NCBI GenBank assembly: GCA_963281255.1
Contig: OY725493.1
Location: forward strand, 2,883,857-2,947,856
Source of the DNA: Aphrocallistes beatrix
Taxonomy: Eukaryota; Porifera; Hexactinellida; Sceptrulophora; Aphrocallistidae
Length of the DNA stretch: 64,000 nt
Direction of reading: 5' to 3'
Shown here piece by piece: positions 11,267 to 59,692 of this stretch. The notes under the pieces are model-generated. The model was given only the letters and a program-made list of their open reading frames with translations. It was not told the DNA's origin and ran no database searches. The translations under genes were made by a program, and so were the position numbers. Every line of letters begins with the position of its first letter. The stretch's first letter is position 1.

Positions 11267-11488
11267 CTGGTGAGTTGTAGTAACAATAAAATTTCCTGCA
11301 ATGTCTTCCAGAGCACCATCTTCTAATCCTAAATATGTCGAATCAATAGATTTAGAGATGAGAGGTGTTAATGATAACCTCATGAAGTCAGGTGGTGAAA
11401 TTGAAAAGATCACACTTGTGCGATCTAATGTTTCATAAACTATCATTCCACCAGTGAAGTAAAATACATTTCCACTATTCATATTTTC
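11267..11488 (-). CDS. Gene B exon 3: secreted Ig-like-repeat protein
   Basis: Internal coding exon of 222 nt (74 codons), read leftward. The acceptor TTCTTATAG ends at 11489 and the donor CAG/GTAGCA starts at 11266. It enters in phase 0, matching the phase-0 end of exon 2, and leaves in phase 0. The peptide completes the second repeat of the protein: a strand-turn region (FYFTGGM), a stretch of alternating hydrophobic residues (SVIFSISPPDF), then TYLGLEDGALEDIAGN, the conserved end of this repeat. The next exon should begin a third repeat; none was found between here and position 1, so it probably lies outside the window beyond a TE-filled intron. Confidence 0.8.
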
Positions 11489-11702
11489 CTATAAGAATAA
11501 GATCAATTGTTAAAACATTATATTATAATATACAAAATATTCACTCCTTCTAGCATTCTTGGAAATTTTGAATAACTTTTATTTTCTATTTTTCTATTTT
11601 TTCAGGAAAAATTTAACAAAATTTACAAGGATGTTATGAAGAGTGGGAACGCACAGTCTACGTACACAAAAATGTCCATCCAGGGCTTGAATTTTATCCA
11701 TA

Positions 11703-11842
11703 CAGTATAACCTCGTTATTACGAACAGGTATTTTATCCCCTATGGAGTAAAATACATGTAAATCACTCAGGTTAATATGAATTCCGGATAATACGAAAA
11801 AATTTCGATCGTCCCGGTGTTCGTATTAACGAGGTTCTACTG
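11703..11842. mobile_element. Pogo-like MITE, 140 bp
   Basis: Starts CAGTATAACCTCGTTATTACGA and ends in the inverse, TCGTATTAACGAGGTTCTACTG, flanked by TA on both sides. It lies in intron 2 of gene B (exon 3 ends left of it). Non-coding. Confidence 0.8.
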
Positions 11843-12943
11843 TATATTGATTCTTTCGACGCCACATATTGAATTGTAGGTATTTTACAGTGTGCAACAA
11901 ATTTTGCTAATATATTATACTTACACAAGTAGATCTAACAACCGATACCTCTTTAATTAAAAAATAAGGATTACGTTAATTATGTTGCATTCCAAATGCC
12001 TAAAACCTCTTGAGGTGTGAAAAATTCTGATACTTTGAGGAAGTGCTTTTGGGGAACATTGTACAAGTATTGGATAATAAGGCGAAATCAGCATTTTGGA
12101 TTTTTAATATGAGCCATCGTCACTTGATTACATATATATATATTTATTAAAAGGTGCTAAGATATATTATGAACATTTATTTGTTGAAAGTTATCTTCTA
12201 TTACGCCATAAAATGATAGGGTTATTCATGGATTCAGAGTTATAGCATGTCTGGATTTTAAATGGTGTCTCAATGTGCCGCGAAGTGTCAGATCAAAAAT
12301 CGTATAGTAACTTTGTCTGCCGGTAAACAGTATAGACCTTTTATCAAATTTCATTACTTTTGCACTAATGGTGATCCCAAAAATCCGTTATGGAGGAAAA
12401 TATATACGTATATATATATAGACATAGGGGCACTCATTTCAGAAGTTGGCCACTATACTTAGTATAGTCGGTAAACAAAAACGAAGAGTTATCATTATAT
12501 TTATACTTAATCATGACACATCTGTAATCAAATTAATTGACTAATTTAATTATAACTCGACATATATAATTATTAATTAACCCACGCTTGCCACAGGGAT
12601 GTGTTGCGTCATTTCCGGTTTAAGTCATTTTCAATGGGGAAGCCAAGGAGTTACTACTATAAATAGAAAAATCCCTTGCTTCCAAGGGTAAATCATATAT
12701 ATACATATAGCTTTACCTACTAAAAGGACACACCACACATACATAATAATATTCTCCACAGTATTATTCTATTTGGTTTGAAAATGCTTTCTCATCATGG
12801 GTGATAACGTCATTGTAGTTTTCTTCCATTTTGAAATTAACCTATACATCCATGGATCAGTGAAAGTAATCAATATTATGCGCCTCTGAATTCTTTGATA
12901 TCATCAGCGCCTAGGCGCCCGCAGGGCGCCACTGTGGATACTA
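11843..12943. other. Intronic stretch of gene B, no gene recognised
   Basis: AT-rich with TA microsatellite tracts (12130-12145, 12400-12420). A GGCGCC..GGCGCC mini-hairpin at 12913-12930 looks like a scrap of the R1 head. Nothing else was supported. Confidence 0.4.
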
Positions 12944-13153
12944 CAGTGGAGTCTCCGAATAACGGACACGTTGGGGACATGGCTTCTGTCCGTTGTAGAG
13001 AATTGTCCGCTTCTCGGAGACTGATCCATCTTTTTATCAAAACACCCAATATGCATCATTTTGAATGCAGTTTTACATGTATTAAAGTTGAATAGTTACG
13101 AGAGAAGTCACAAGTTTTATATTGGCATAGATTTATACTATATATATATACGA

Positions 13154-13454
13154 CAGAGTTGCACGCGGGCCGAATATAATAGTTTTGCCGGCTCCGCCGG
13201 CCGGAAATCTTGGCAGGACTCCCCGCGATGACAACCGAGACGATGTTTTTAATTGTCACGAGGTACCAATTAATGAATACTTACGTAAATGGAACTTTGT
13301 TAGTTTCCACTTATTTGTGTTTGCAGAATCTCACTCCCATAAAAGGATTCCCTAAGTGTCTCTCTATAGTTAGTAACTTACAAAGTGGGCCAAAAATATT
13401 TATGCGGGCTTCTTGCGGGCCGCGGTTACAAATTGCGGCCCGCGTGCAACTCTG
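13154..13454. mobile_element. hAT MITE (CAGAGTTGCACGCGGG family), 301 bp
   Basis: The termini CAGAGTTGCACGCGGGCCG and CGGCCCGCGTGCAACTCTG are inverse. A perfect 8-bp target duplication, ATATACGA, lies at 13146-13153 and 13455-13462. The interior matches 20653-21003 in the opposite orientation. It inserted at the very edge of the mariner fragment. Confidence 0.92.
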
Positions 13455-13462
13455 ATATACGA

Positions 13463-14098
13463 GGGTTGTCCCGAAAGTCCGTGGACTTCTTGAAGGAAAC
13501 CATAAGAGTATAGCTAATTAACATTTGACAATCTTTTAATCCAAATATTTCTCATTTTTCTACTGTATAGCATCACTTTCTATTTCTTACTGTGTTCAAT
13601 ATTGCATTGTCAAAAATTCTATCTTTTCTCCGAAATAGACTCTTTTGAAGAAAGTAAACAGACTGTAATTTGGTTCTGACGGAAACAGGGGAAATCTGGT
13701 TCGGAGATATTAACTGAGATGTCAGAAGTATATGGAGATGAATGCCCCAAAAAAGACGATGATCTACAAGTGGACTGATCGATTTTCTGATGGGTGGAAG
13801 ACTGTTGAGGATGCACCACGTAGTGGCCGTCCAAAATCCACTATTTTTCATGGTAACATCAAGCATGTGAAGAAGGTAATATATCAGAATAATCGTGTCA
13901 CTGTCAGAGAATTAGAAGAGAAGTTGGGAATCCCTAAAACGTCTATTCACCTTATACTTACTGAACATCTTGGAATGACTTATGAGTTGTGGAGTTGAGG
14001 TACGAGAAGGATTACCTCAAGCGTAGTGTGTCTGGAGATGAATCATGGCTCCATTTTTGTGAACCTCTAAATTTCAGAGCAGCCAGTGGAAAAGAAAC
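13463..14098 (+). pseudogene. mariner transposase fragment
   Basis: The left terminus reads GGGTTGTCCCGAAAGTCCGTGG, typical of mariner. The coding part 13732-13998 holds the first helix-turn-helix region: WTDRFSDGWKTVEDAPRSGRP, followed by VRELEEKLGIPKTSIHLIL. This is followed in another frame by SGDESWLHF, the block carrying the first catalytic aspartate (about 14025-14060). The middle and the C-terminal catalytic motifs are missing. The right side is cut by an R1 head fragment at 14100. Confidence 0.8.
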
Positions 14099-14165
14099 GC
14101 TTCTGGCGTACACAAAGTGTCCGCCAGACGTGCATCGCAAGCAAGCGAAGCGCGCTTGTATATAT
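14099..14165 (-). repeat. R1 head fragment
   Basis: ACAAAGTGTCCGCC followed by GCAAGCAAGCGAAGCGCGCTTG is the inverted GC-rich head of R1 without its body. It abuts the mariner fragment directly. Confidence 0.75.
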
Positions 14166-14565
14166 TATAATGGGTGCGCGAATAAGTCAGGAAGATGACT
14201 TTGCCTACTGGTTTACACTTGCATACTAGCTACAGTATCTATTGTGGTGCAAATGTCCATGGTTACTTCAAACATCTTCGACTTTCAAGAAATCTGGTAT
14301 AGTTACTCATATTATTATGTAATTTTGTGATATCCATGAAAATTATTGGGTGCAGTTTCTGGTTGTCCGTTCTTGGGAGATAATTTTGTATTAAGACACG
14401 CCATTCGGGGTCAGTTCCCTGTCCGTTGTTCGGAATTCGGAGTTGTCCGCTTCTCGGTGACTGCTTAAGTATCAAATGCTTGGCAAATTCAATCCGTGCC
14501 GCGAGGTTTGTCCGTTGTAGGGGGTTGTACGCTTCTCGGAGTATCCGTTTGGGAGACTCCACTGT

Positions 14566-15398
14566 ATTAAGTATTCGCCAAACGCGTTATGCAAGTGCTT
14601 GTTATAAAATGGTAACAATGAGATCATAATTCCTAAATGAGAGTTAATATTTTCATCTGAGACTCAAACCTGCTCGAGCCAGTCACAAAATACTCCGCAA
14701 CAGCTATCTATGGACTGGCAATTTCTACAATCAATTCATTTTCGATATAGGGTAACATTATAAAATCTAAGGTACTACCGGATTATAATAATGGGGATCA
14801 TAGCTAATTATAAAACAGGTTTTCTTCAGACAACTTCTGTAAGGTTCTCTCGAATTAAAGTATATTCTAGTAAATCGTATATACATACATCTTCAATTTG
14901 TCAAATCTCAATCCAATAAAATATTCATACGCCTAAATCGATGAATAACATTATGGTATAAGATAATATTCCAAAATTTTCAGCTCCTAAACTCGATTGG
15001 GTTTAAAAACATACATCTGAAGGAGAGTATTCCTAGATAATTTCCTGGTGGGGTTATCGAGCAATTTGGTGAATTTTGTTAAAAAAGTTGAGAATCTATG
15101 ATGTAGAAAATTACTTTAAAACAAAATAATAGATCTACCCACCTCATGGCACAAATAATATCGGCCCGCTGCCGAGGTTTTCAATGTCAGTGCTTTTAAC
15201 TTGCTTTGCGAATAAATTTCAAAATAATTAGAGAACTAGATAACCCTTTACGAATTTTTGTGAAAGCAGACATAGGTTCATGAAGCTTGATGTATGTAAG
15301 AAAAATTTAATATTTTAGTTGCACAGTATGTACTTGAATCAACGATTGATGAATGTTGCAAATATTATTCAAGGTTACAAGGTAATTACTCGTAATTA
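14566..15398. other. Intronic stretch of gene B, decayed R1-like tail only
   Basis: 14590-14745 resembles the R1 tail (AAAATGGTAACAATGAGATCATAATTCC, AATCAATTCATT) but is heavily diverged. The rest, to 15398, shows nothing recognisable. Confidence 0.4.
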
Positions 15399-15750
15399 TC
15401 ACAAGCGCGCTTCGCTTGCTTGCGCTGCGCGGCTGGTGGACACTGTATCAGCCGGAGGCGCCCTTTGGGCGCCTGGGGTCACATTGTTTAATTACAAGGG
15501 AGATGACATCCCTAAATACGTCTGTCATACGGCTATAATCGACATCGAGCGAAAAATCACCAAATTTGTCAATTTTTAAAATTTTTGATGCTTAATGATG
15601 ACGTCACAACACAGTTTAGGTGATAGAAGGCTGAAATTTTAATAGAATGTGTATATTAATATTCTTCACATGTGATACAACAACCTTCAAAAAATGATGA
15701 CTCATCACTCTGTTATAACGTCATCATTACGCATCAAAATTAGGTACTAC
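15399..15750 (+). repeat. R1 copy with inverted second half
   Basis: Starts with the intact GC-rich head ACAAGCGCGCTTCGCTTGC, runs to TTTTTGATGCTTAATGATGACGTCA, then continues with the body in inverted orientation to CGCATCAAAATT. The body palindrome around TGACGTCA probably mediated the rearrangement. Confidence 0.7.
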
Positions 15751-15769
15751 TAGTATAACCCCTACGGAA

Positions 15770-16960
15770 CCTATTGGGAAATGAATTTAGTGTATCATTT
15801 TTTATAGCTTATTTTTTATAGGTGACCTCTTATTACAATTAAATAAAAACCCCCCACAGACGGGATGGAAGTGTGCTTCCAAATCTCATAAGTCACCTTA
15901 AGTCACCTTTATTATACTTAAATAATCAATTCCAGTCCATGTCGTTAAAAGTTATTTTATGATCGAATTGATTGATCGTAGCATATAACACACTTTAATT
16001 GTTGTTAACAATCAAATTGTAGACTGAAAATAGCAGTATTCAATCATTTATATGAAATAGAATAATGTGAATGGCATTATAAAAGGCTGATAATTGATTG
16101 GTTGTCACATGAACCAATGAATTTCAATCACAAATAGTTCTTTTGATTGTATGCATAAATCAATACTATTTTATTCGAATGTATTTGCACTATAAAATAA
16201 TCGAATTTGATTGGCCAGCACATTTTGTCACCTATCTCGAAGAGGTGTGAACTCGGCGAGGTGTGAACACCGAGGTGCACATCTCCATATCACTTTGCAC
16301 CTCCTGTAAAAATTTCAAGACGATATCTCTTAAACTCTGGTCAGGACACGAATTTCGGACGGCTGGAACATCCTCATTTTAGTACTGTGCATCCTATACT
16401 ATTAGTATAGTAGCTATGCTACTATACTAATACTATAGGAAGCACACTAAAAATTAGAGCTTCCATTATTTTCCTCTGAGTTATTGAGAATAATATCATT
16501 TTGACTCCCATAGCATTTTAATATGAACTCTCTAGGCTCCGAAAGAAGCCGCTGTCATATCTTAAAAAAACTATCGAAGATACCTATAATATTCATTAAA
16601 ATATTAAATGAAAGTATATATACCATAAGATATAGGTTCCTCAAAAATCTCCTTTAAAAAAACATTTTTCTCGACTTATCATTGACTTTATTGTAAAACA
16701 AATTCAATGGAAAACTTTGAAAAAATTAGAAAATGGCGAATCTGATCAAGAAATATGTGTCCAAGTGAGGATATTATACTTAAGAATCATTACAAAGGTT
16801 GATAATAATGTACGTACATATAAAAATTTGAACACTTTTCAGGGTACTTTTGATATTCTTCCCCAAATTTGTTTAGAATATGTTAAAATAATTAGTATAA
16901 ATGCGAATATATTCCTGTCAATGCTTAGGGAAGTTAACATCCAAAAACGATATAATGTAC
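15770..16960. other. Intron 2 of gene B, mostly unassigned
   Basis: No coding exon recognised. A near-palindrome at about 16384-16450 (ATCCTATACTATTAGTATAG and its inverse around 16418) and GAGGTGTGAAC repeats at 16243-16275 are the only structures seen. Confidence 0.4.
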
Positions 16961-17300
16961 CTGTAAAAATATTTTCGTAAAATTTATTGTGAAGTTATCA
17001 ATGGGTTCATTAAACTGTAGTGTTATAGTTCTCATGTTTAAATCGATCTGTTGAAATGCTGTAAATAAAGGAGGTATTCTGTCGAATATGAAAACACTAG
17101 GTAAGAGAGGACCATTGAAAAATACAGGATTCTGATTCATATCTCTGATAAGTGAGGGAGAATAAAATAAATAAGATGTGTTTCGAGATGTTGCGAAGTT
17201 ATCAATGGATTTAAGAAAATTAACATCATTTAGTGAAAGGGAAAAATTAACGGATATTGAATCTTCAACAGATAAAATAATCCCGCCATTAAGTGTGAAG
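16961..17300 (-). CDS. Gene B exon 2: secreted Ig-like-repeat protein
   Basis: Coding exon of 340 nt. The acceptor TTTGTTTATAG ends at 17301 and the donor CAG/GTACAT starts at 16960. One base completes the codon split by exon 1 (AA+C, Asn). It is open for 113 further codons and ends in phase 0. The first part finishes repeat 1: FTLNGGIILSVEDS, a stretch of alternating hydrophobics, SLSLNDVNFLKSI, then SLIRDMNQNPV. The second part starts repeat 2 with the hallmark PPLFTAFQQIDLNMRTITLQF and NEPI. Only the half from 17140 has an ATG, so simple ORF scans miss the first 50 codons. There are no internal stops. A host gene rather than a TE is indicated by clean splice sites and repeat continuity. 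Confidence 0.85.
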
Positions 17301-17876
17301 CTATAAACAAATAATAAAAGGTTAATATTATTATAGATTAAAAAGTAGGGAAATATTATTTAATATTCGTCTAATAATTTTGGTCAGAAAGCAAGCCAAA
17401 TCGAGAATAAATTGTTATCAGTAGAAGCTGTTGATACAAACAAATATTTTACCTCCTCTGTATTTAAAGTACATGGACTAGGAATGTTTCTGGACCAGAT
17501 CATACTATATAATACGGCTATATAAGTATAGTATTTGCCTATTTCATTTCTAGGCCATTGTTTACTTTATGATTGCTAGTTTATATAAGTACCTACTATC
17601 ACGAAATCAACTTGACTTAGGTTTTCAAATATGCTGGAAACATCTAAAACACTTTTGAGAATGATTTATCATTGGACTTAACCACAATCACATATATATA
17701 TATATACACCCATATATGGTAATTATTATATAACTGAATTAAGCATTATAAATGAGTGATTACTTATAAAATTACCAACTGAAAAAAGGGAAGACGATCG
17801 TGCTAAAATTGATATTCTTCTTAGTATTGGAGAGTGCATCGTCACTCAATAATGAGCGACGAAACTCAATGCTACT
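17301..17876. other. Intron 1 of gene B, no feature recognised
   Basis: AT-rich. It includes a (TA)n tract at 17690-17706. No element terminus was seen before the mariner. Confidence 0.4.
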
Positions 17877-17878
17877 TA

Positions 17879-19201
17879 GGTCATTTCAAAAGTACTGATC
17901 ACCCCCCACCAATTTGATATTAAGCAACGACTGATGTGTTATTTAATTACATATTCTCGAAATAGTCTCCCTTGACGCGAATACACTCCTTTAGACGGTC
18001 TATCCAGCAGCGAAATGTATTTTTATACTCCGTCTGTGGGATCGATTTCAGGTACTTATGAACGGCGATTTCGATCTCCATTCGGCTAGTGAACTCCTTA
18101 TCAGAGAGATGACATTTCAGCTTTAAAACAACCAGAAGTCACAAGGACTTAGGTCAGGGGAATAGGGAGGGTGATTCAGTGTTTTCATCCCTATATCCTT
18201 GATGTATGCGGTGACTTGTTTAGTTTTATGGCTACTGGCATTATCATGCAGAAGTTTTATTCCACGAGGACCAGTTCTCGGCCGACGCTCTGTGTAGTGT
18301 TTACTGACTTCTGCGAGCACATGAGTGCAATAAAAGTCTCCAGTAACATTCTGGCCCTTCGGAACGCAAACCTGAGCAACTGAACCGTAGGCGTCAAACG
18401 CAATTGCGTATATTACCTTCTTGGCACGGAAATCTGGACGCGGTCTTTTAGGTCGGGGTACGCCGGGATGCAGCCAACACTTAGATTTTTCCTTGGATTT
18501 AGGTTGTGAATAGTAAATCCAAGTTTAATCTATGGTTACTATCTCATAGAGTCGCCTTGCATCAAATTTTTCGTAATGTAGAAGATTTTCACAACATTCT
18601 ACCCTCTGTTTCATCCGGGCCTCTGACAGCAAATACGGCACCCACCGAGCGCAAACCTTCCTTACTCAGAGATCTTCATTCAGAATGTGATAAATATTTC
18701 CCGTTAAGATATCCGTATACTTAGAAAGCTCTTCAATAGAGCAGCAAGGGTCATTTCGAAGAAATTCACCAACCAACTCAATTGAGGGTTCACAGGTTGC
18801 AGATTTAGGCCTACCAGTCCGAGGCTCATCTTCAATGCTGTCTCTTCACTCTCTAAATAGTCGAGCCCATCTTCTAACCGTGGAATAATCTAGTGTTTGA
18901 TCTCCACAAACTTCCACGAGATTATTGTGGGTATACCTGTTCGAATCTTTTAGCAGGGATCGAAACTTGATATACGCCCTTTGCTCTTGCTCAATAATAG
19001 ACGATTTTGAAGCCATAAATGTATAAGTAGCCAAAACTGACGAGATTGAAATGATGATTATAAGAAAAATACTTATGCTATCTTAAAAATTCTTAAGATA
19101 TTAGGAGAGAATGGGTAATGCTATCTGGATTATATTAATTGGTACATTCGATAACCACTAGCTGTCAAAAATCAATAGTGATCAGTACTTTTGAAATGAC
19201 C
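17879..19201 (-). mobile_element. Full-length mariner transposon, 1323 bp
   Basis: Perfect 24-bp inverted termini: GGTCATTTCAAAAGTACTGA plus TCAC on the left, and the exact inverse ending at 19201. Each end is flanked by TA. The length is typical for mariner. The transposase reads on the minus strand. It lies in intron 1 of gene B. Confidence 0.93.
18100..19018 (-). pseudogene. mariner transposase, degenerate
   Basis: DDD-type cut-and-paste transposase, read leftward from an ATG at about 19016. The N-terminal helix-turn-helix region (EQRAYIKFRSLLKDS.. and STVRRWARLFRE) covers 19034-18846. The middle part is out of frame (an 18.4-18.7 kb remnant with the RPKRPRPDFRAKK-like sense in another frame). 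The C-terminal catalytic part, 18320-18123, has LLHDNASSHKT with the second Asp and HPPYSPDLSPCDFWLF with the third Asp, fitting D,D34D. Several frameshifts separate the blocks, so this copy is not autonomous, although its termini are intact. Confidence 0.85.
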
Positions 19202-19420
19202 TAAGTAATGCACCTCGACTTGGACTGAACTTTAGAACAGTCGCCATCTGTGGAAATATTTAGTGAATGTGGAATGCATTTGGAAAATCACGACTTTAAA
19301 TTTTGTTGCAGGGTTTTCAAATATCCCAGAGCACCGTAATAACTGGAAAACTATTTGTAGAAAGAGTAGAAGCCGAGGCTAGACTTAAATAAATTTGAAT
19401 ATGATAAAATGCAGTGTATA

Positions 19421-20155
19421 ATCCTTACTATTAAAACTCGATTAATGTTGGTTTGTTTGTGTATATATATATATGTAATGAATTGATTGAAGAAACTGCA
19501 AGGCACAGAAAGCTGATTTTAGGCATGTGGGAGTCTGTTGGCTATGGCTCCACTAAGTTCTGAGCTCAGGCGAAAATGTCGACTCATCATGGAATTATGA
19601 CGTCATTGTCACCTTTTTTATAATTATAAATTTCAGTTTTTCGAACTTAACTCAGCCATTTTAAGTGATAGAAGGCTGAAATTTTAATAGAATGTTATCC
19701 TTACAATTAAAACTCGATTAATGTGTATATATATATATATATATGTGTATCTATATCTATATCTATATCTATATCTATATCTGTAACGAATTGATTGAAG
19801 AAACTGCCAGGCACAGAAAGCTGATTTTTGGCATGTGGGACTCTTTTGGCTATGGCTCCAGTAAGTTCTGAGCTCAGACGAAAATGTCGACTCATCATCT
19901 AATTATGACGTCATTGTCACCTTTTTTATAATTAGAAATTTCAGTTTTTCGATCATAACTCAGCCATTTTAGGTGATAGAAGGCTGAAATTTTAATATAA
20001 TGTGTATATTAATATGCCTCACATATGATGCAACATCATCAAAAAATGATGACTCATCATTTTATTATGACGTCATCATTACGCATCAAAATTTTAAAAA
20101 TTGACAAATTTGTTGATTTTTCGTGCGATATCGAATATAACAGTAAGACAGACGG
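19421..20155 (-). repeat. Two R1 copies in tandem, inverted orientation
   Basis: The first copy, about 19421-19694, begins ATCCTTACTATTAAAACTCGATTAATG and carries tail and body only. The second restarts TTATCCTTACAATTAAAACTCGATT at 19696 and runs to the AGTAAGACAGACG block near 20150. Between them is an (ATATCT)n tract (19745-19782). Both lack the GC-rich head. The second abuts the gypsy fragment. Confidence 0.75.
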
Positions 20156-20157
20156 GA

Positions 20158-21345
20158 CTCCCAATTGTCATACATCCTGAAGAAGCAGCCAAACAAGTCG
20201 ACGAGGAAGACGAGGCTATTGGAGAGCATGAAATTGGTGATATGGAGGAGTTTAGAGAATATGTGTTAGATGGACCTAGAACTGCAGATGACCAGGACTG
20301 CTTTAGCATGTTTATTGTAGTGGAGCGCTTAAAAAAAAGCTGAAGGTATGCGAGCACCTCACATCTTCCAGACAGTTAACGGGGGTGAATTTACTATTAA
20401 CCTGCTGAATACGACACTGCGCAATGGCGGTTACATGTACATCTTACTCATAGTTAATATCTTTTCACATTACGTCGAATCAATCCCGTTGAAAGACCAG
20501 ACCGCCACGTCCATCGTTAACGCATTCATGGAAGGATGGGCTTATCGTGGACATGGCGTACCAAATATTATGCTCACAGATCAGGGGAAGAATGTGGATG
20601 GGTTAGCGGTGCATGAACTGTGTCACGACTTAGGGATTACTAAACGTCACACCAGAGTTGCACGCGGGTCGCAATTTGTAACCGCGGCCCGGCTCGCAAC
20701 TAAATTATTCGGCCCGCAAGAAGCCCGCATAAATATTTTTGGCCCACTTTGTAAGTTACTAACTATAGAGAGACACTTAGGGAATCCTTTTATGGGAGTG
20801 AGATTCTGCAAACACAAATAAGTGGAAACTAACAAAGTTCCATTTACATAAGTATTCATTAATTTTTACCTCGTGACAATTAAAAACATCGTCTCGGTTT
20901 TCATCGCGGGGAGTCCTGCCAAGATTTCCGATCCGCGGAGCCCGCAAACTATTATATTCGGCCCGCACGGCCCGCGGGCCGAGCCGGCCCGCGTGCAACT
21001 CTGCGTCACACCCGGAGTCCGATGGGATGGCCGAAAGACATATCTGCTTCGTCAAACAAGTGATACGTTGCTTGATGCTCGAACGCCACCTAGAAAAGGG
21101 TTCCTGGCCGTCGTTGTTGCAAGAGATTACTTTCTACTGCAATAATCTGGACAACGCGTCGAGTAAAATATCTCCACACATGTTGGCGTGACCATCAGCC
21201 GAGATCACTAATCGATATAACGGTAAAGAAGAGGCAAGAATTGAGTGAAATTGTACGAGAAAACCAGGAGTGCACTCAATCGGGGGCTAAGAAGCTATAA
21301 AAAGTATGATAAAGGCAAGAAAACATCTAACATAACCACGGGAGA
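20158..21345 (+). pseudogene. Ty3/gypsy integrase fragment, split by a hAT MITE
   Basis: An acidic coding-like block (20158-20343, no known domain) is followed after a TGA by the integrase core: YILLIVNIFSHYVESIPLKD near 20433-20490 with the first Asp replaced by Asn (LIVNIF), GVPNIMLTDQGKNVDG near 20550-20600 with the second Asp, and HDLGITKRHT just before the MITE at 20653. After the MITE the core resumes in another frame with SDGMAER and VKQVIRCL (about 21015-21075), and a decayed tail to about 21345. Frameshifts and stops after 21120 make it inactive. No LTRs were recognised. Confidence 0.8.
20653..21003. mobile_element. hAT MITE (CAGAGTTGCACGCGGG family), 351 bp
   Basis: Inverted termini CAGAGTTGCACGCGGGTCG and GGCCCGCGTGCAACTCTG, with a perfect 8-bp target duplication CGTCACAC at 20645-20652 and 21004-21011. 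It splits the gypsy integrase reading frame. It is the inverse-orientation sibling of 13154-13454, with GC-rich GGCCCGC subterminal repeats. Confidence 0.95.
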
Positions 21346-21440
21346 TTGGGTCATGATTAATGTGATGGACTATTCGTATACATGTTAGTTCGTAGTAGAG
21401 AGAGAACTATCCAATTTTCCACCTCTTTTGTATTAATATT

Positions 21441-49476: not shown

Positions 49477-49482
49477 TATATA

Positions 49483-50215: not shown

Positions 50216-50497
50216 ATATCATAGCCTACTGTATATAAGGCCTCACAGTAACTTGCGGATTTGGGACTAGGGATGCGGTAGAAGATGGTTAAACTTAAAC
50301 ATGAGTTGCCTTAAATAATTGACAAAGCACAATAGAGCTTAGGAATGTATTACCAGCATATATAAATATGGTGTCAAAGTACCGACATCCGTTGTTAAAA
50401 TTTGATTAGTCACTATATGGTTGCGAAATAGGTTATATTTGTGTCAAATTCGGTGATTTTCAGAGGCCGTTTAGGGGCATTTCTAAGTGTTAATACG

Positions 50498-50935
50498 AAA
50501 AATATGGATTTTTTTCATGGAATGTTGCTACATTCTAGTGTTGCTATGGAAACGTGCTTTGGTCAGTTGGGGTTATATCTTGAAAACTGCAATAGCTACA
50601 CATTCAAATGCAATTCCATTTGATAGCGAATATACTACTTCCTATCAAGCCATAATATAATTTTGACCTCTAAATTCAATGGTTTACGAGATATTCGACA
50701 AATTACCAAATGTGACCAATATGATACATTGTCGAATATCTCGTAAACCATTGAATTTAGAGGTCGAAATTATACTATCGCTTAATAGGAAGTAGTATAT
50801 TTGCTATCAAATGGAATTACATTTAAATGTCTAGCTATTACAGTTTGCAAGATATAACCCCAACTGACCAAAACACGTTACCATAGCAACACTGGAATGT
50901 AGCAACATTCCATGAAAAAAATCCAAAAAATTTCG
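50498..50935. mobile_element. 438-bp foldback element
   Basis: ATGGAATGTTGCTACATTC through TACTACTTCCTAT and GTTTACGAGATATTCGACAA faces its inverse about a centre near 50718, with arms of about 205 bp. Arms differ at roughly 5-8% of positions. No coding content. Outer flanks (TGGATTTTTTTCAT / ATGAAAAAAATCCA) extend the palindrome slightly. Confidence 0.88.
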
Positions 50936-51266
50936 TAATTAACTCATTCATATCTCAATTCAATGCGAAACAAATAGACGAGGTATCACTCGGCCGCAGT
51001 AAGTTTTACTTTCACCTTGTCTACTAACACAGCCATAAAATCCCATACAGCATACCTTCATAGACAAAAACTTTCGGGTCCCGATAATAAAAAAAAGAAA
51101 AAGTCCGCGGAAATAAAAATAATTTGAAGATTCCTATCCCAAATGCAATGAAGTAGACTGACGGGTTTTTGAGACTAATATTTTTGACATTTTGCTTCGC
51201 AGGCATAATTATAAATTTTAATTAAGGGTGCACTAATAATTGGGAATTGCTTAGCTCTGCTGTGAC

Positions 51267-51644
51267 TAGGGTTTTTAATCTCGGTCAGAAATTCCAATCC
51301 CGGGATTTCGGGATTGACAAATTCTGAATCCCGGGATCCCGGGATTAGTAATTTTCAAGAATTGGTATGCTAGTATTTGTATATAGTTTAATATAACGTG
51401 ACTATTTATGAATTACGGAAATAATATGAGTAATGAATAATGAATATAGAATTAACATCTCTATTTATTTTCTTTTTTCAGATTGTTCCTAATAAATACA
51501 AGTGTGTCTAAAGTGCTATCATTCAGCCTTGTTCTTAACTTGTTGCATAGATATCCTGAGGATCAGTATCCCGGGATTGAAAAATGAATCCCGGGATTCA
51601 ATCCCGGGCAAAAACAAGCCGGAATCCCGGGATTAAAAACCCTA
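51267..51644. mobile_element. hAT MITE (TAGGGTTTTTAATC family), 378 bp
   Basis: TAGGGTTTTTAATC and GATTAAAAACCCTA inverse termini. Perfect target duplication GCTGTGAC at 51259-51266 and 51645-51652. An internally shorter sibling of 46074-46799. Confidence 0.95.
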
Positions 51645-51652
51645 GCTGTGAC

Positions 51653-52215
51653 GCTAAAGCCAGAACGATCGCCATTCTCTTAGCATCTCGAATTCTTGAC
51701 TGCTTAATTATCATAGCTACACTAGTTCAACACTTACGTAAGTGCCTCTTACAGCAATAGCTGTATACTTTTAGTGCAGCTCCTCTGGTGGGAAATGAAA
51801 ACTATATAATGGATATCATGTAACTTCGCCCGTATGAAATATAACTAGTGAAACAATTTGTACTATATTAACAGCTGATTCGATATCTAAGATAACGAAT
51901 CAGTAAAAGTGAAATGATATGGTATGGACAACAAGTACATACGTAGTTGTAATAGTAATACGACTAGTGCGACCATTGGGAATTATTGAGAACGCATGAT
52001 TTATCAGTGCCTGCCTAGATACCTTGTTCCTACGCTGCTCTACCAAAAGTACCAAAAATAAATAGTAGCAAACGTATTGTTTTGAAAAAAGGTGCACATA
52101 TTTCAATAAGATTTCAATCGTATCACTTCCTGAGTGGATGTGTCGCTTATCATCTCTGCTTAGCATCGCCCAACCCCCCTCATTGTCTCAATGAAATAAG
52201 ACTTCCTATTTAACA
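51653..52215. other. Stretch without recognised gene
   Basis: No exon or terminus recognised. The minus-strand open frame at 51900-52166 has no motif and looks like chance. Confidence 0.35.
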
Positions 52216-52217
52216 AT

Positions 52218-52436
52218 AACAAGCCCGCTTCGCTTACTAGCGCTGCGGGGCTGACGGACACTTTTTGTCCGCCGAAAGAGCCCTTTGGGCGCCTGGGGTC
52301 ATATTGATTAATTATATGGGAGATAAAATCTCTAAATACGTCTGTCCTACTGTTATAATCGATATCGCACGAAAAATCACCAAATTTGTCAATTTTAAAA
52401 TTTTTGATGCGTAATAATGACGTTATAACAGAGTGA
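52218..52436 (+). repeat. R1 head and partial body
   Basis: AACAAGCCCGCTTCGCTTAC, a diverged head, the GTCCGCC and GGCGCC hairpins, and the body to ATAACAGAGTGATGG, where a Tc1-like transposase begins abruptly. Confidence 0.75.
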
Positions 52437-53076
52437 TGGCAAAACGATCGGGTTTGGAGTCAGGATACGCGAAATATTGAATCTGTTCATACAGTTAAAT
52501 TACCACCTAAAATCATGGTCTGGGGGATGATGAGTGGCACCGGGCTCTCGGAACTCCATTTTCTTCCTCACAAACAATCTGTAAATGCAGATTACTATAT
52601 AAACGAAATTTTGGAAGTCCTACCTTAAAGAAAAGAAAAAATACAGGCCCAGTGACAGAACGGAAAATGTGTCGCTTGATGTCCAAGGCCATTATTATGC
52701 AGGATGGGGCTCCTGCCCATACCGCCATAAAGACGCAAACCTGGCATTCCCATCATATTCCAGGCTACTGGGTAAAAGGAATTTGGCCAAGCAATTCACC
52801 AGATTTAAATCCCATTGAAAATCTTTGGACGATTATTCAAGCAGAGCTTGACAAGAAGAGACCAGCTACCAACTTGTCAGAACTCGCCAATTACCTGAAA
52901 AATATCTGGAATGGACTCACGCCTTCGACTTCGGAGAATTTAATCTCAGGGATGTCTGCTCGTATTAATTCTTGTGTTAAAGGATATCATATTGGCAAAT
53001 GATATAAGATTTCTATACTGTAGTTTACTAGTTATGGGTATTTGTACAACCGGAAAAAACTTTTGAGACACCCTAT
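52437..53076 (+). pseudogene. Tc1-like transposase, C-terminal half
   Basis: DDE-type cut-and-paste transposase missing its DNA-binding N-terminus. KIMVWGMMSG (about 52511) lies between the first and second catalytic residues. After a frameshift near 52620, IIMQDGAPAHTA (second Asp, about 52693) and SNSPDLNPIENLW (Glu, about 52790-52830) give D34E spacing, and the intact C-terminus ends at a stop at 53000. The right terminus is AACTTTTGAGACACCCTATA near 53075. The 5' end is truncated against R1. Confidence 0.85.
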
Positions 53077-53081
53077 ATATA

Positions 53082-53519
53082 CAGTACCCAGACAAAAGTA
53101 TTTGCACACTTCATTATCTCACGTTGATTTAATACTCAAATGGGTCTATTTATAAAGATTAAAACTCCGAAACGGTAAGTGATACAACTAATCGGGTTTC
53201 AGATTCGAAATCTTCGCAATCGAATTAGTTATGGTAGGATATTTCTAATCAATTATTAATTCCCAATGTTTTCAAATTATCAATCACTGCCACCTTGTGC
53301 TACATATGTCCCTTTTTTGGTTGATAATTTTACTCATTGGGTTGAGCAATTTATTAGAAATATCCTACAATAACTAATTCGAATGCGAAGATTTCGAATC
53401 TGAAACCCGATTAGTTGTATCACTTACCGTTTCAGAGTTTTAATCTTCATAAATAGACTCATTTTAGTATTAAATCAACGTGAGATAATGAAGTGTGCAA
53501 ATACTTTTGTCTGGATACG
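53082..53519. mobile_element. Tc1-like MITE, 438 bp
   Basis: CAGTACCCAGACAAAAGTATTT to AATACTTTTGTCTGGATACG. The interior is strongly symmetric: CGAAACGGTAAGTGATACAACTAATCGGG occurs with its near-exact inverse, as do the adjacent blocks. It lies directly beside the Tc1-like C-terminal half. Confidence 0.88.
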
Positions 53520-53559
53520 TATATCTATATAGCCCCACTACATGTCTCTTCATTCCACC

Positions 53560-53708
53560 CCTCTCGGAAAATGGTCCGAAACTCATATCGAGGCGCGGTT
53601 CACCGCAGCCTAGCCATCGCAACTTACCCAGACGTCGCCCTCACGCAGTTTTTTCAAAGGTACATGCCTGCGCTAGTACGCGCGGGCCAACCCGCGTACT
53701 AGCGCATA
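53560..53708 (+). other. GC-rich coding-like island of unknown origin
   Basis: Unusually GC-rich for the window, open in two frames (for example NSYRGAVHRSLAIATYPDVALTQFFQRYMPALV). It ends in a GCGCTAGTACGCG / CGCGTACTAGCGC inverted repeat (53670-53705). It shares only the word CAGTTTTTTCAAA with the GIY-YIG-like ORF at 56.4 kb. No domain recognised. Confidence 0.35.
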
Positions 53709-53943
53709 ACTGAAATATTGTGTTCGGATAACTGAAATGATGTGTTCGGATAACTGAAATGATGTGTTCGAATAACTGAAATGATGTGTTCGGATTACTG
53801 AAATAATGTGTTCGGATAACTGAAATGATGTGTTCGAATAACTGAAATGATGTGTTCGAATAACTGAAATGATGTGTTCGGATAACTGAAATGATGTGTT
53901 CGGATAACTGAAATATGTGTTCGGATAACTGAAATAATGTTTA
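53705..53943. repeat. 22-bp minisatellite, about 11 units
   Basis: Unit ATAACTGAAATGATGTGTTCGG with single-base variants; one unit is a base shorter. The GTTCGGATAAC junction equals the terminal motif of the pogo-like MITE whose right end follows at 54179. Confidence 0.92.
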
Positions 53944-54179
53944 ATAAATCAATTCCTTAAAATTGTATGTTCCAAAATTGTGCGGAGCATTGTCAATTTG
54001 TTTGGCTATACATACGTGTAAGTAGTATTCAAATCATAATACGTTCTTTAATAATATCTAAGTTGGTACATGTGCATTTAAGAGCGTAAAAACGTATTTC
54101 GCTTATCCGAACGATTTCACTTATCCGAACACCAATCTTTGAGCTAACAAACAGAGGTGTTCGGATAACCGAGGGTGTA
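53944..54179. mobile_element. Right part of a pogo-like MITE (GTTCGGATAAC family)
   Basis: TTATCCGAACGATTTCACTTATCCGAACACC, then the terminus GTTCGGATAACCGAGGGTGTACTG with TA. The left end appears to have been replaced by expansion of the 22-bp array. Confidence 0.7.
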
Positions 54180-54255
54180 CTGTACACGTATACACAACTT
54201 TGTAATATATATATATTCACATATTACATATGTGTTCATTAGCTTCTAGAAATAT

Positions 54256-56059
54256 CTACATTTTCAATACCTCTTTTATTTTCAGTTAAATGGCAACAAA
54301 ACGTGCTCCTAAGCGAGCCTATTCAGATGATTATCTGAAATTTGGATTTACCATTATCTTAACGGAAGGTATTGAAAAGCCACAATGTGTGATATGTCTT
54401 AAAGTTTTATCTGCAGAGTCCATGAAGCCGTTTCAGCTTTTCGAGAAGGAACATCCAACATACAAGGATCGAGATGTTTCTTTCTTCCAAAGAAAATCAG
54501 ATTCTGCAAAGAAATCCAGACTTGACACTACAGGACAGACATTTGTAAACATAAAAGCTGCAGTTGAAGCGTCATATGCTGTGTCACTCCGCATTGCAAA
54601 ATCTAAGAAACCCCATACTATTGGTGAAGAACTAGTATTGCCTTGCACGAAAGACATTGTGCGTCTTATGATTGGTGCGGATGCAGGGAAAAAACTAAGT
54701 TCTTTGTCACTCTCTGATAATACTATCCAATGCAGAATACAAGAAATGTCAGATGATATAAAGAACCAAGTAGTGGATCAAATTAAACAGTCACCTAGCT
54801 ATGTTTTACAATTAGACGAGTCAACAGATGTTTCTTCTTGTGCTCAGTTGATGGTATATGTACGTTATATCCACAATTGTGATTTCAAGGAAGAGTTACT
54901 CTTTTGTCACCCACTCGATTCGCAAACACGTGGAATATATATTTTCAACTAATCATTGTATGATTCATCGTGAAGCACTTGCTGCAAAAACTTTACCAAT
55001 CTGCCTAAATATAGTTTTGCAGGACGCGGTTAAAATAGTGAATTTCGTTAAAAATAGTGCTCTCAACACAAGTCTTTTCAGAAATATTTGCTTAGAAATG
55101 GATGCAGTGCAAAAGAACTTATTGTACCACACTGAAGTTCGATGGCTTTCAAAGGGCAATGTGTTGAAACGTATTCTTGATCTTAAAGATGAAATAACAG
55201 AAACAGAAGAAAGAAGACACAATGGCTTGATTTGTTCGGGGATCGAGAGTGGATTTCTTAACTTTGCTATCTCTGTGATATTTTTGAAAGACTCAACACT
55301 CTGAACCTCTCATTACAAGGCAAAGAAAGCAACATCATGGATTTCGTAGATAAGCTTTCTGCCTTTCAAGAAATGCTTGATCTCTGGGGAAAGAAAATAA
55401 AAGCAGGTAGATTGGCAATGTTTTCTCACCTTTACAACTATATTGAAGATTGCGAAACTACCATCAGCGAGCCTTTGAAAATTGACATTGGATCGCATTT
55501 GCATTCACTTACCAAATTTCAGTTTGCACTGGTTCGCAATCCTTTTTTTGTCAAAATGGATGACTGTATTCCTGAAAATGAAGATGCTGCTCAGGAGGAT
55601 TTTATCAAGCTTGCAAATGACTCAGGAGCAAAGAATTTGTTTTCAAGGGTGAATTTGACATGTTTTGGAGTTCCATACTCATAAGCAACCCAAAAGTGTC
55701 ACAGATTGCCCTTAAGTTACTAATGCCATTCCCATCAAACTATCTTTGTGAAACGGCGTTTTCTAGCATGCTTGTGATCAAAACAAAGGCTAAAAATAGA
55801 CTTGAGGTTGAGCCAGATTTACGCTGCTGTTTATCATTAACACAGCCAAGAATTGAAAGACTAGTAGATCAGAAGCAACATCAAAAATCACATTAAAACT
55901 GATAAAATAAAATAAAGCAAGAATTAGTAATATATTCTATACATTAGGCTCAATTAATTATAAAAAATTTGAGCTTCATTACAACACTGAGGGGTGGGAC
56001 GCGAAGACTGCAAAATTTAAAAAGTGGGTCGTGGTCTAAAAAAGGTTGAAAACCCCTGA
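54256..56059 (+). pseudogene. ZBED/SCAND3-like hAT transposase, nearly complete but deleted
   Basis: A TTTTATTTTCAG splice acceptor at about 54285 precedes the ATG at 54290. N-terminus with lysine-rich start and BED-like CVICLKVLS (about 54388), whose His pair seems lost. The core has YVLQLDESTDVSS (about 54800-54840, first Asp). About 40 residues are deleted at 54940-54955, including the second Asp block. THCMIHREALAAKTLP-type sequence (54955-55005), EVRWLSKGNVLKRI (55135-55175) and the C-terminal dimerisation region (CETAFSSMLVIKTKAKNRL, 55745-55805) follow with shifts at about 55300 and 55680. The right hAT terminus GGTTGAAAACCCCTG ends at 56059; the left terminus was not found. Confidence 0.87.
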
Positions 56060-56123
56060 CCTATTCCTTCCCAGAGCACTCACTCGATCATAATTATTTC
56101 ATTTGCGCACAGCGGTGTAACAT

Positions 56124-56495
56124 ATGTACCGCCTATTAGCGCCCTGCTCGCATCTTAGAATGGTGTACTTGTTACACCACCGATCTCTCCCCCATACCTA
56201 CTACGTAGGTCAGTCAGGCGCCACTCCCATGGTGACCAACCAACCGCGTTCTAATCACCGCATCCACGCCCATTTACGGGCCAATCCGGAAGTCATGTGG
56301 CAAATTTTATGCTTCATTCCCATTGATTTCCGAACCCCTACTCGTATGTCTACAAGCATCGAGCTCAAAATGATTCGCAGCCTTCGGAAAGGCAACCCAG
56401 ACGACAACTTCATGTCATGTGACCCAGCTCAGTTTTTTCAAACGCTCGCTCAAGCTCCTCCACTCAGTCCCCTTGTCCAAATAGACGAGGCTTAA
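56124..56495 (+). CDS. Small ORF resembling a GIY-YIG nuclease domain
   Basis: Open for 123 codons; an ATG at 56124 or, more likely, 56160 starts it. The order of conserved positions fits GIY-YIG: VYLL at residues 14-17 (GIY position), TYYVGQS at 25-31 (YIG position), Arg/His within RSNHRIHAH (42-50), and a Glu in SIELKMIRSL (about 83) followed by GNPDDNF with a terminal Asn. GIY-YIG domains nick DNA in homing endonucleases, repair enzymes and Penelope-like retroelements. No reverse transcriptase or partner domain lies beside it, and no splice signals were seen. It is GC-richer than its surroundings and ends with ordinary codons, TAA-like stop at 56493. Assignment is by motif pattern only; it could be chance or an unrelated protein. 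Confidence 0.45.
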   Translation: MYRLLAPCSHLRMVYLLHHRSLPHTYYVGQSGATPMVTNQPRSNHRIHAHLRANPEVMWQILCFIPIDFRTPTRMSTSIELKMIRSLRKGNPDDNFMSCDPAQFFQTLAQAPPLSPLVQIDEA

Positions 56496-56657
56496 GACCC
56501 TAGGAATACAACCCTCATATGAAAATTCAAGATGATGCAACTCAAAAATAAACTTATTATTTACCCGTAATTATTATATTCTGACGAGATATAAGTCGAA
56601 AGCATTTGTTCAATGTATTGCTTAATAAACTTCACTTCTGTTATTTCGAATCACTTT

Positions 56658-56660
<3 letters not shown>

Positions 56661-56712
<52 letters not shown>
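56661..56712. repeat. (TA)n microsatellite, about 52 bp
   Basis: Uninterrupted TA dinucleotides into which (or beside which) the Tc1-like MITE inserted at a TA. Confidence 0.95.
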
Positions 56713-56715
<3 letters not shown>

Positions 56716-57172
56716 TGCCTGAACAAAAGTATTCATACACCCCATAATTCCCCATAAAAATACGTAGTTATAATACTGATTTATTTAGCGAATCAAGGTA
56801 TTTAATTGGTAAGAGATAGGCTTAATTTAACTTCAAATTCTAATTCTCCATATTCGAATTACTCACTTTTTAATCTTTCAACTTGTTTACACTCCCACAA
56901 GGTTAAAATTTTTCAGACTGCGCCACCTCATACCACCAATGCCATCATATACAATGGTGATCACTCTCGACATGTGGCATAGGAAAGCAAATGCTGAAAA
57001 TACTTAATCTTGAAGAAGAGTAACTAAGTTAAAAACTTATAAAGCAGGTTTTTGAAGTCAAATTAAGTGTATCTCTTACCAATTAAATACATTGACTCGC
57101 TAAATAAATCAGTATTATAACTATTTGTATGGGGAATTATGGGGTGTACGAATACTTTTGTTCAGGCAGTGT
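56713..57172. mobile_element. Tc1-like MITE, 460 bp
   Basis: CACTGCCTGAACAAAAGTATTC to GAATACTTTTGTTCAGGCAGTG, perfect inverses, TA flanks. Subterminal AATTCCCCATA/TATGGGGAATT also pairs. R1-like ACATTAATCGAGTTTTAATAATGAGGATA follows directly. Confidence 0.92.
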
Positions 57173-57969
57173 ATATACAAACATTAATCGAGTTTTAATA
57201 ATGAGGATACATTTCATATGTCTAACTTCAGTGGATTACGAGATAAATTACAGGACCCGAGATTGAACACCTACAGTCTTTACTTAAAGGAGTCGATATG
57301 CTATTGCTATAGCTAAACAAAATTGTTACTAGCAATTATTACCTATATCTCGACTAATAAAACTTTAGAAGTGTGCCGATGCCACTGTGCAACACTGACT
57401 AAACAACCATCCCAGGGTTTTACACTTAATCGATTAAATTATCCGCCCAACAATAAGGATGAGAAATAATAATAAGAATGGGAAATAAAAATAAACCGCT
57501 CGAATAATTGCAAGAATAAATAATATAGTTACTCTCATGACTAGTTGTATGCATTGAATACTTTATTTGGTGAGAGTCAATTCCTACGCTAATGATAATC
57601 ATTGGCGTAACCAGGATTTTTTTGAGTGGGCCCAGGTCGGGTACGCTATCAAGTTTTTAAAGATTAGCAATGTACCATAAAATCATTCCTCCATGTCAAG
57701 AACTAAACTGGGATTTTCAGGGGGGTATAGAGTGTGCGATTTGAGCGACAGTAATAGGAGTTTTTGGGGCATGGCCCCCATAATTTTTTTCTTTGATGTT
57801 CAAAGATCGATCTACAGCAATTCTTCCATTATATGATAGGGTGATAATAACTATTATATTCACTGAAACAATTGCCACCTTTGAAATGATTTAGAAATAC
57901 AATTTTCATTCTATGAATTTTGAGCTATCAGCACTCGGGTGTTATGCCAATACAAGTGTATGGATTCAT
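57173..57969. other. Mostly unassigned; hAT-like terminus at 57602
   Basis: The R1 terminus scrap at 57180-57210, then AT-rich sequence. At 57602 TTGGCGTAACCAGGATTTTT and, further on, GGGGCATGGCCCCC look like one end of a hAT element without a partner. Confidence 0.4.
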
Positions 57970-58072
57970 GTTCCTGGTAGGGATCGACCGGTCACCCGGC
58001 CACGGCTTAAAGTTCCGAACCTGACCGGGGACTAGTTGGGTTTGAAAAATCATATTACATATACATTACTAT

Positions 58073-59010
58073 CATAGGCGCCAAGTTTTGGAGAATAGAA
58101 TGAAACTTAGGGGGCTTGCCCCCCAGAAAATTTTTTAAATCTTAGATGCTCAAATATCGATATACAGCAGTGGCGGCGACAGGGTATGGTTCGGTAGGGC
58201 GACCGCCCCACCAGCCAAACATCTCGCCCCACCTCCGGTGGGGCGAGATTTATTTATTTTTAGTCAAAAATTCTGATATTATGTATGTATACACCGGTAC
58301 GATGCTGTTATGTCCCTGATTAATTGCTACAGCTACTCACATGACAGAAATGTCGGGATGTAATTGCGAAACTGACTGTATGTTCATCTCCTTGAAAATA
58401 CTGCGCAATATTTCATGTCTTGCATGTTCATGCAGACGAACATGCCTGATGAACATGCAATCAGATCCGCATGTCGCATATGCCACGAGGTATCTTTATC
58501 CGTACACGGCGCTTACTGTTTTCTATGCACACACCATTGTAATTTGCGTTCTAAGTAACTTGTAAGGATAACTTATAAAATGTATGTGGGTATGAGCGTA
58601 TGACTAAAGTTTATATAAAAAATGTTGAATAATTACGGGAATTTCAAGTGTCTCAGCGATTTTGATAAACAAAGGGAAATTGATTCGCCCCATCGCCCCA
58701 CCAGGGTTTTGAGGCTGGCGCCGCCCCTGATATACAGCCATTCTTGCTACCTAGGGAAAAGAAAATCTCGGACTATTGTGGAAGAAAAATGAAATTGGGA
58801 TATATATTTAGACTCAATTAACATAATATCGGGGTTTAGTTGTAACCCATAAGTTCATGTGGAGTCCTGCCATACCACAGCTTCCTCCACTGCTCCATTG
58901 CCAGCACCACGGCCCCTCGCAGGCTCAAAACCTGGGGGGGCAGCCCCCCCAGGGTCCAGACCTGGGGGAGAGGGGGCGCCCCCCCCAGGTACACACATTT
59001 GGCGCCTATG
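58073..59010. mobile_element. Middle hAT MITE (CATAGGCGCCAAG family) of the nest
   Basis: CATAGGCGCCAAGTTTTGG versus ACATTTGGCGCCTATG. Target duplication ATTACTAT at 58065-58072 and 59011-59018. The interior matches 32419-33036 (AATATCGATATACAG, GGGGTTTAGTTGTAACC, poly-C/poly-G blocks). It carries the inner element. Confidence 0.95.
58168..58729. mobile_element. Inner hAT element of the nest, 562 bp
   Basis: Left CAGTGGCGGCGACAGGG; right GCTGGCGCCGCCCCTG. Perfect target duplication ATATACAG at 58160-58167 and 58730-58737; the sibling at 32.5 kb shows the uninterrupted site with a single ATATACAG. GCCCCACC/GGTGGGGCG lies near both ends. A 74-codon Cys-rich open frame inside (58341-58565) has no recognised domain. 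Confidence 0.95.
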
Positions 59011-59242
59011 ATTACTATGTATTCAGAACCCGACATTTGATTACAGTTACGATTCTATTCACGTTCACTATATTTCACGGTGTTGACTTAATTAAAGGAG
59101 CTTTGTGTATATGTTTATAAGACCCAAGCCACATCAACTCTAAACTTATATTATTTACATTAACCCTAACCCCGGTTCCTGTTAAAAATGTTTCAGCCCG
59201 GCTCCGGCCGAATTCCGTCCCCGGTCGATCCCTAGTTCCTGG

Positions 59243-59488
59243 GCCTGCACATTCTATTGCATCCACTATCCTAAAAATCTCGAAAGGGCCTAAAGTTTGG
59301 GGACATCTGTTTCTGAGACATGTGTCGGCACCACTCTAGTTTCGAAATACTCAGGTCACTTAGGGTGGGACTAGACCGCTATGGAGCGGGCCTTGGCCAG
59401 CAGGTGCTATCCTTGATTAAGCAACTGATGTTATTTGGTACAGGTTAAAATCGTATTAAACAATCGTCAAATAAAATAGTTAACTTAC
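59243..59488. other. Gene A intron 1, donor-proximal
   Basis: No feature recognised between the nested hAT elements and gene A exon 1. Confidence 0.4.
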
Positions 59489-59692
59489 ATTTAGGCCAAC
59501 GTTGTCAAGAATTACTCCATTAGTCCATGTGAGATAGCATTCTTCTTTTTTAGAGCAAATATCAGTTTGGGTTTTAATTTGATCAAGATCTTTCCTTGAA
59601 ATCTCAGAAATAACTTTATCTGTGAATTGTTCATTTGTAACATTTGAAAAAAAAGAAAAGAAAAGAAAATATATCAAAATATTACCAACCAT
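59489..59692 (-). CDS. Gene A exon 1: signal peptide of a secreted Ig-like-repeat protein
   Basis: Start ATG at 59692 (CAT 59690-59692); an in-frame TTG just upstream is not a likely start. 204 nt, 68 codons, ending in phase 0 at a perfect donor AAT/GTAAGT. Signal peptide at residues 1-17 (NILIYFLFFSFFS). Then SEISRKDLDQIKTQTDICSKKEECYL and GVILDNVGLN, which parallels gene B exon 1 (INDLNYLKKE..FCSTVGNCF..NFIRDTNNN), including the two Cys with similar spacing (DIC-SKKEE-C versus FC-STVGN-C). The protein presumably acts outside the cell or at its surface. Exon 2 lies 21.9 kb to the left, beyond an intron full of TEs. Confidence 0.8.

What the first reader, a model, noticed from the sequence alone, without database searches (positions are those of the whole stretch)
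11267..59692. Two paralogous secreted-repeat genes scattered across TE-filled introns
Five exons on the minus strand form two genes, A (59692 leftward) and B (26220 leftward), each with a signal peptide, a matching two-Cys segment and the same Ig-like repeat hallmark (IDL..(I/L).LTF.E). Phases are consistent at 59489/37597 (0/0), 25838/17300 (2/2) and 16961/11488 (0/0). Introns reach about 21.9 kb and contain transposons on both strands. ATG-based ORF scanning misses much of this, including 50 codons of exon 2 of gene B.
Basis: partly seen in the sequence, partly recalled or inferred. Interest (0 to 1): 0.8.

Follow-up and report, generated by a model that had tools for sequence, protein, structure and literature searches.

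The report
Giant glass-sponge repeat protein gene
What looked like two small secreted-protein genes is one end of a single giant gene in a glass sponge, probably coding for a protein of roughly 15,000 amino acids built of over a hundred immunoglobulin-like beads, and it is a relative of the largest protein reported for such a sponge.

Summary
The five exons are real: they rank 1 to 5 of 2104 window frames under a repeat profile without window letters, and the three reader junctions hold. The interpretation changes. A and B are one gene: A2 ends in phase 1 inside a repeat, B1 begins in phase 1 with the missing half, and joined they make one full-length repeat (105 bits). B1's "signal peptide" is the translated polypyrimidine tract of its 3' splice site; A1's may be too, but that is open. 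The gene continues left of the window: ten exons over 100 kb, consistent phases, 2693 codons without a stop, 21 complete repeats. More exons follow, ending in an 11,239-codon frame. Estimated product: about 15,400 aa, about 125 repeats.

Two further loci carry the repeat. One holds a 49,068-codon uninterrupted frame, close to the 49,014-aa single-exon protein published for Aphrocallistes vastus. The other shows a fuller architecture: signal peptide, repeats, three TIG domains, Calx-beta. Best reading: secreted, acidic, glycosylated Ig-bead filaments acting as extracellular scaffold or adhesive. Function is inferred; splicing was not tested.

The parts
59489..59619 (-). Exon A1, phase-1 acceptor to phase-0 donor: second half of a repeat. 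An in-frame ATG lies at 59692 (open whether it is a start).
37357..37597 (-). Exon A2, phase 0 to phase 1: first half of a repeat (TPP...LTFTE...)
25838..26162 (-).
16961..17300 (-). Exon B2, phase 2 to phase 0
11267..11488 (-). Exon B3, phase 0 to phase 0; continues in exon E6 at window -7807 (C7:2876049), outside the window
37598..59488 (-). Intron A1-A2, 21,891 bases, holds a DDE_3 transposase frame (52511-52999, +)
26163..37356 (-).
17301..25837 (-). Intron B1-B2, 8,537 bases, holds an integrase-core frame (+), a mariner-type frame (-) and a fold-back element (23921-25220)
11489..16960 (-). Intron B2-B3, 5,472 bases

Best explanation
The exons are the 5' part of one giant gene (about 184 kb, minus strand, C7:2943475 to 2759786) in a glass sponge, Aphrocallistes vastus or a very close relative. 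It codes for a chain of roughly 125 Ig-like beads of about 123 residues and is one of three loci built of the same repeat. Most likely mechanism (inferred): acidic, N-glycosylated beads form filaments up to about a micrometre long outside the cell that act as a scaffold or adhesive; terminal TIG and Calx-beta domains, kept in the C11 paralogue, would anchor or cross-link it. Shown here: repeats, open frames, splice phases, paralogous loci, signal peptide and TIG/Calx-beta in C11. Inferred: transcription, splicing, secretion of the window copy, and the role.
For: Five exons rank 1-5 of 2104 frames. Ten-exon chain: nine junctions in phase, 2693 codons, 0 stops, each exon open in one of three forward frames, 21 full repeats of 52.9-101.7 bits plus a half repeat at the start. 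A2+B1 makes a full repeat. Continuing repeat exons on the same strand down to an 11,239-codon frame. Paralogous loci on C11 and C20. C11: signal peptide, three TIG, Calx-beta (22.5 bits, 27.0, cut-off 27). Mean net charge -7 per repeat; 717 sequons against 568 in shuffles.
Against: No RNA evidence. No exon was found upstream of A1 in 64 kb, so the true start is missing or A1 is a first exon after all (reading A1 from its ATG scores 29.7 bits against 23.9 from the acceptor). C7 shows no TIG or Calx-beta tail. Junctions after E10 were not checked by script, and two stretches there were seen only as rows. The role rests on composition and domain analogy.
Confidence: 0.7

Rival explanations
1. Two separate paralogous genes A and B, each with its own signal peptide.
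For: Both A1 and B1 have an in-frame ATG followed by a hydrophobic stretch. The species trans-splices a leader (PMC10282587 section 2.1), so internal starts are conceivable.
Against: Each gene would begin and A would end in the middle of a repeat; the A2-B1 join completes it. Hydrophobic in-frame stretches also precede the internal exons B2 and E9. A2 has no stop at a repeat boundary but a GTGAGT donor.
Confidence: 0.04
2. One gene, but its 5' part in the window is a decaying remnant: the original start is lost and TE-filled introns are no longer spliced, the functional part lying further left.
For: No upstream exon or true N-terminal exon found. Introns here are 5.5-21.9 kb in a species described as having short introns.
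Against: 419 window codons without a stop while the other frames hold 16-48; splice sites and phases intact at all junctions; spliced repeats score like the rest (67-101.6 bits).
Confidence: 0.12
3. One gene as described, but the product is not a structural adhesive: for example a glycocalyx or mucus barrier, a spicule-matrix protein, or a microbe-binding surface protein.
For: Acidic, Ser/Thr/Asn-rich repeats with many sequons fit these as well.
Against: TIG and Calx-beta in C11 lean towards adhesion or matrix, but weakly.
Confidence: 0.25
4. The pieces belong to a transposon polyprotein.
For: They lie among transposons.
Against: All listed matches of a genome search lie at three loci and the repeats match no TE family in Pfam.
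Confidence: 0.01

Closest known systems
Avas.s016.g412.i1 of Aphrocallistes vastus (49,014 aa, 5.34 MDa, single 147-kb exon; PMC10282587)
   Same: Taken here to be the C20 locus: 49,068-codon frame of the same repeat; mean residue mass of a 9028-residue sample 109.2 against 108.9 Da implied by the paper.
   Different: C7 is split over at least ten short exons and long introns before its giant exon; no sequence of the published protein was available to compare.
Bacterial S-layer protein SbsC Ig-like domains (PDB 2ra1, 4uj6, 4uic) and Pfam Big_5
Giant repeat protein of a Methylococcales MAG (L050, JAQTUW010000005.1)
   Same: 118-residue repeats align end to end with the sponge profile: 53.6 bits, at most 2.7 in 50 shuffles; hhalign E 2.7e-5, probability 48.6%, 111 columns.
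   Different: Prokaryotic, only one locus found in a capped scan; 17% identity in the profile alignment; direction of descent not tested.
Sponge aggregation factors
   Same: Large secreted sponge proteins; Calx-beta is recalled as a domain of their core proteins and occurs in C11.
   Different: Main repeat differs; Wreath domain not tested; Grice 2017 was not held.
Titin and other giant Ig-chain proteins (recalled)
   Same: Long chains of Ig-like beads.
   Different: Titin is intracellular; here the one complete N-terminus seen (C11) has a signal peptide.

Membership tests
Glass-sponge giant repeat family (C7, C11, C20 loci) | Tandem copies of the 124-column repeat | tested here: met
   21 full repeats in the ten-exon chain; five window exons E 2.1e-8 or better
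Glass-sponge giant repeat family (C7, C11, C20 loci) | Signal peptide at the N-terminus | tested here: inconclusive
   Seen in C11; A1 of C7 ambiguous, no upstream exon in 64 kb
Glass-sponge giant repeat family (C7, C11, C20 loci) | C-terminal TIG and Calx-beta domains | tested here: not met
   C11 only; none of 52 TIG rows and none of 11 Calx-beta rows lies on C7 or C20. So the tail cannot define the family.
Pfam Big_5 (PF13205) | Score over the curated cut-off of 23.6 bits | tested here: not met
   Best 17.7 bits; 3 of 40 repeats match at E 0.1 or better, best 0.022; 0 matches in the genome at E 0.001
S-layer (SbsC-type) Ig-like fold | Same fold as SbsC domains | tested here: inconclusive
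Sponge aggregation factor | Calx-beta domains | tested here: inconclusive
   One in C11 at or under the cut-off (22.5 bits, 27.0); none found on C7
Sponge aggregation factor | Wreath domain; re-aggregation activity | not tested
   No model or assay at hand; one search found no paper holding two of the three terms
Transposon polyprotein | Transposase, integrase or RT domain, or dispersed copies | tested here: not met

The most novel reading that the evidence does not exclude
The three loci code for the filament core of the glass-sponge extracellular adhesive, perhaps the 'species-unspecific aggregation factor' described biochemically from Aphrocallistes in 1984 (title seen only in reference lists). 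The bead descends from a bacterial S-layer or adhesin-type repeat, and the giant exons arose by intron loss biased to the 3' end plus repeat expansion, giving one of the largest exons and proteins known in animals.
Probability: 0.15. Interest if true: 0.88.

Novelty: new variant of a known kind. Interest (0 to 1): 0.6.

Why it matters
A glass sponge holds one of the largest proteins reported in an animal, which in the passages I saw is a size in one sentence. This work gives it a repeat unit, two related loci, and in one of them a signal peptide and terminal TIG/Calx-beta domains, so its role in the matrix of a syncytial animal becomes testable. It also shows how ORF-based reading can cut such a gene into false small 'secreted' genes, because translated pyrimidine tracts imitate signal peptides. 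Finally, exon length rises from 5' to 3' in both multi-exon loci, which makes models of intron loss testable on one family.

Tried and rejected
Two genes: rejected. Transposon polyprotein: rejected. Pfam Big_5 membership: cut-off not met. NCBIfam: one chance match far under its cut-off. PDB sequence searches: lowest E 0.46 and 0.27. Exon upstream of A1 over 64 kb by profile, tblastn and motif: nothing credible; no row on C7 lies above 2875632. TIG or Calx-beta near the ends of C7 and C20: none. Plasmid collection with the repeat consensus: no match. AlphaFold on exons B2 and B1: failed, pLDDT 31.5, so no fold search with it. The species is not proven: no reference sequence is held, and the size match is the main link. 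My note says that the C20 frame ends at a GGGTAATT donor; the DNA reads ACATTCAGTGGGAAC then TAA, with only a weak GT, so that remark is withdrawn. Shared intron positions between C7 and C11 were not worked out; no claim is made.
Full report
WHERE IT IS. The window is C7:2883857-2947856 of a 100.5-Mb assembly in 28 contigs. A 49,068-codon open frame on contig C20 (both ends checked, 1708475 to 1855678; the middle was not fetched) is close in size to the 49,014-aa, 5.34-MDa, single 147-kb-exon protein reported as the largest of the glass sponge Aphrocallistes vastus (PMC10282587; passages, section 2.1). The mean residue mass of a 9028-residue C20 sample is 109.2 Da, against 108.9 implied by the paper. 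I take the genome to be A. vastus or a very close relative; the published assembly was 80.3 Mb in 186 scaffolds, so this is a different one, and no sequence comparison was possible.

THE OBSERVATION. All five exons are there, with GT/AG borders and the stated phases. A repeat profile trained on loci outside the window, scored against all 2104 window frames of at least 20 aa, puts the five exons at ranks 1 to 5 (E 8.7e-27 to 2.1e-8); rank 6 has E 1.2.

ONE GENE, NOT TWO. The repeat is about 123 residues (124 profile columns; consensus). Joined, the repeat is complete, columns 1-125, 105.3 bits, against 47.7 and 48.4 bits apart. Left of the window five more exons (starting at C7:2876049, 2870951, 2862040, 2849495 and 2845542) continue it. 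The ten-exon chain has consistent phases at nine junctions, 2693 codons, no stop, each exon open in only one of three forward frames, and 21 full repeats of 52.9 to 101.7 bits after a half repeat at the start. Introns are 2.8 to 21.9 kb. Two further stretches (C7:2816846 and 2801400) were seen only as rows; then come frames of 415 and 574 aa and the 11,239-codon frame, which ends with TAA at C7:2759786, near a repeat boundary and without a hydrophobic tail in its last residues. Adding these up, partly by rounded lengths (one search list; sum of the rest), I estimate about 15,400 aa and about 125 repeats. Junctions beyond E10 were judged by eye only.

THE SIGNAL PEPTIDES. In-frame extensions upstream of internal acceptors are pyrimidine-rich and so read as F, L, I, V, S. 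The highest mean hydropathy over 12 residues is 2.31 (A1), 3.24 (B1), 1.62 (B2) and 3.15 (E9), against 2.57 for the signal peptide of the C11 locus; taking the best of three frames in the 60 bases before each of the ten acceptors, six of ten reach 2.26 or more and four do not (A1 1.87, B3 0.0, E8 1.45, E9 0.18). B1's signal peptide is refuted by the join. A1's is open: no upstream exon appeared in 64 kb or among the 110 rows of a genome search with the C11 first exon, and reading A1 from its ATG scores slightly better (29.7 against 23.9 bits).

THE FAMILY. A protein search gave 172 matches; all rows listed (not all 172 are) lie on C7, C11 and C20. From the DNA held I collected 339 repeat hits and 256 distinct full-length ones; median identity of 3000 sampled pairs is 29%. 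C11 begins with MKRPFYHFFFLISISLFSILPTQAQ and a divergent first repeat. It ends, after the repeats, in three TIG domains (92.7 bits) and a Calx-beta domain (22.5 bits against cut-off 27; 27.0, counted as over it). C7 and C20 have no row among 52 TIG and 11 Calx-beta rows. The C20 frame begins within a first repeat and ends within a repeat (columns 1-54), so that 'single exon' may not be the whole gene; no further repeat exon was found within 15 kb after it (best E 0.03, other strand) or 8 kb before it.

EXON SIZES. Exon length rises from 5' to 3' in C7 (15 exons, rho 0.83, p 1e-4) and in C11 (13 frames, rho 0.84, p 3e-4). Several lengths are stop-to-stop frames or rounded by hand, and repeat expansion inside one exon could give the same trend. 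cDNA-mediated intron loss would predict it (the RT model is named in the abstract start of PMC3652778 in the listing; its 3' bias is recalled), but it is not proof.

HOW IT PROBABLY WORKS. The repeats are acidic (mean net charge -7) and have more N-glycosylation sequons than shuffles (717 against a mean of 568, maximum 601 of 20). Most lack Cys (195 of 256) or have a pair (40 of 256). With a signal peptide and TIG/Calx-beta ends in one locus, this points to extracellular filaments: at a recalled 4 nm per Ig bead, about 0.5 micrometre for C7 and 1.6 for C20. I infer a scaffold or adhesive of the sponge surface or matrix. An aggregation factor and a C-type lectin called a putative one have been described from A. 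vastus (titles of Muller 1984 and Gundacker 2001 seen in the reference lists of PMC4557014 and PMC8380372, passages); identity with this family is speculation.

WHAT IS IN PRINT. Searches on sponge and giant or largest proteins, glass sponge genomes, Ig-like repeats with sponge terms, aggregation factors and huge proteins (passages of PMC11573180) showed me, in listings and passages, only the one sentence in PMC10282587. Passages of the O. minuta genome paper (PMC10280926) mention no such protein. Only open-licence papers are held, and supplements were not seen.

Noticed in passing
window 23921-25220: Fold-back element in intron B1-B2: arms 24091-24449 and 24677-25035 are 98% complementary and encode, in both directions, a 112-aa piece found in similar pairs on other contigs at 88-99% identity, with longer frames of 365-401 aa on C8 and C19 as possible parent genes. 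The parent's start (L052) matches Pfam 7tm_2 weakly (14.9 bits, cut-off 20.6). It may be a mobile hairpin that captured a receptor gene fragment.
   Followed up: partly
G000 C12:4512745-4519458 (-) and C12:4541969-4548581 (+); C6:2735728-2750453 (+): Frames of 4716, 4701 and 4712 aa rich in TIG domains; the two on C12 look like an inverted duplication.
   Followed up: no
window 53706-53940: Minisatellite: 10.7 copies of a 22-base unit, 94% matches, in intron A1-A2.
   Followed up: no
C20:1708475-1855678: The 147-kb open frame starts and ends within repeats, so the published single-exon model may lack end exons.
   Followed up: partly
window 62756-63163: Reverse-transcriptase (RVT_1) frame on the minus strand just upstream of A1.
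   Followed up: no
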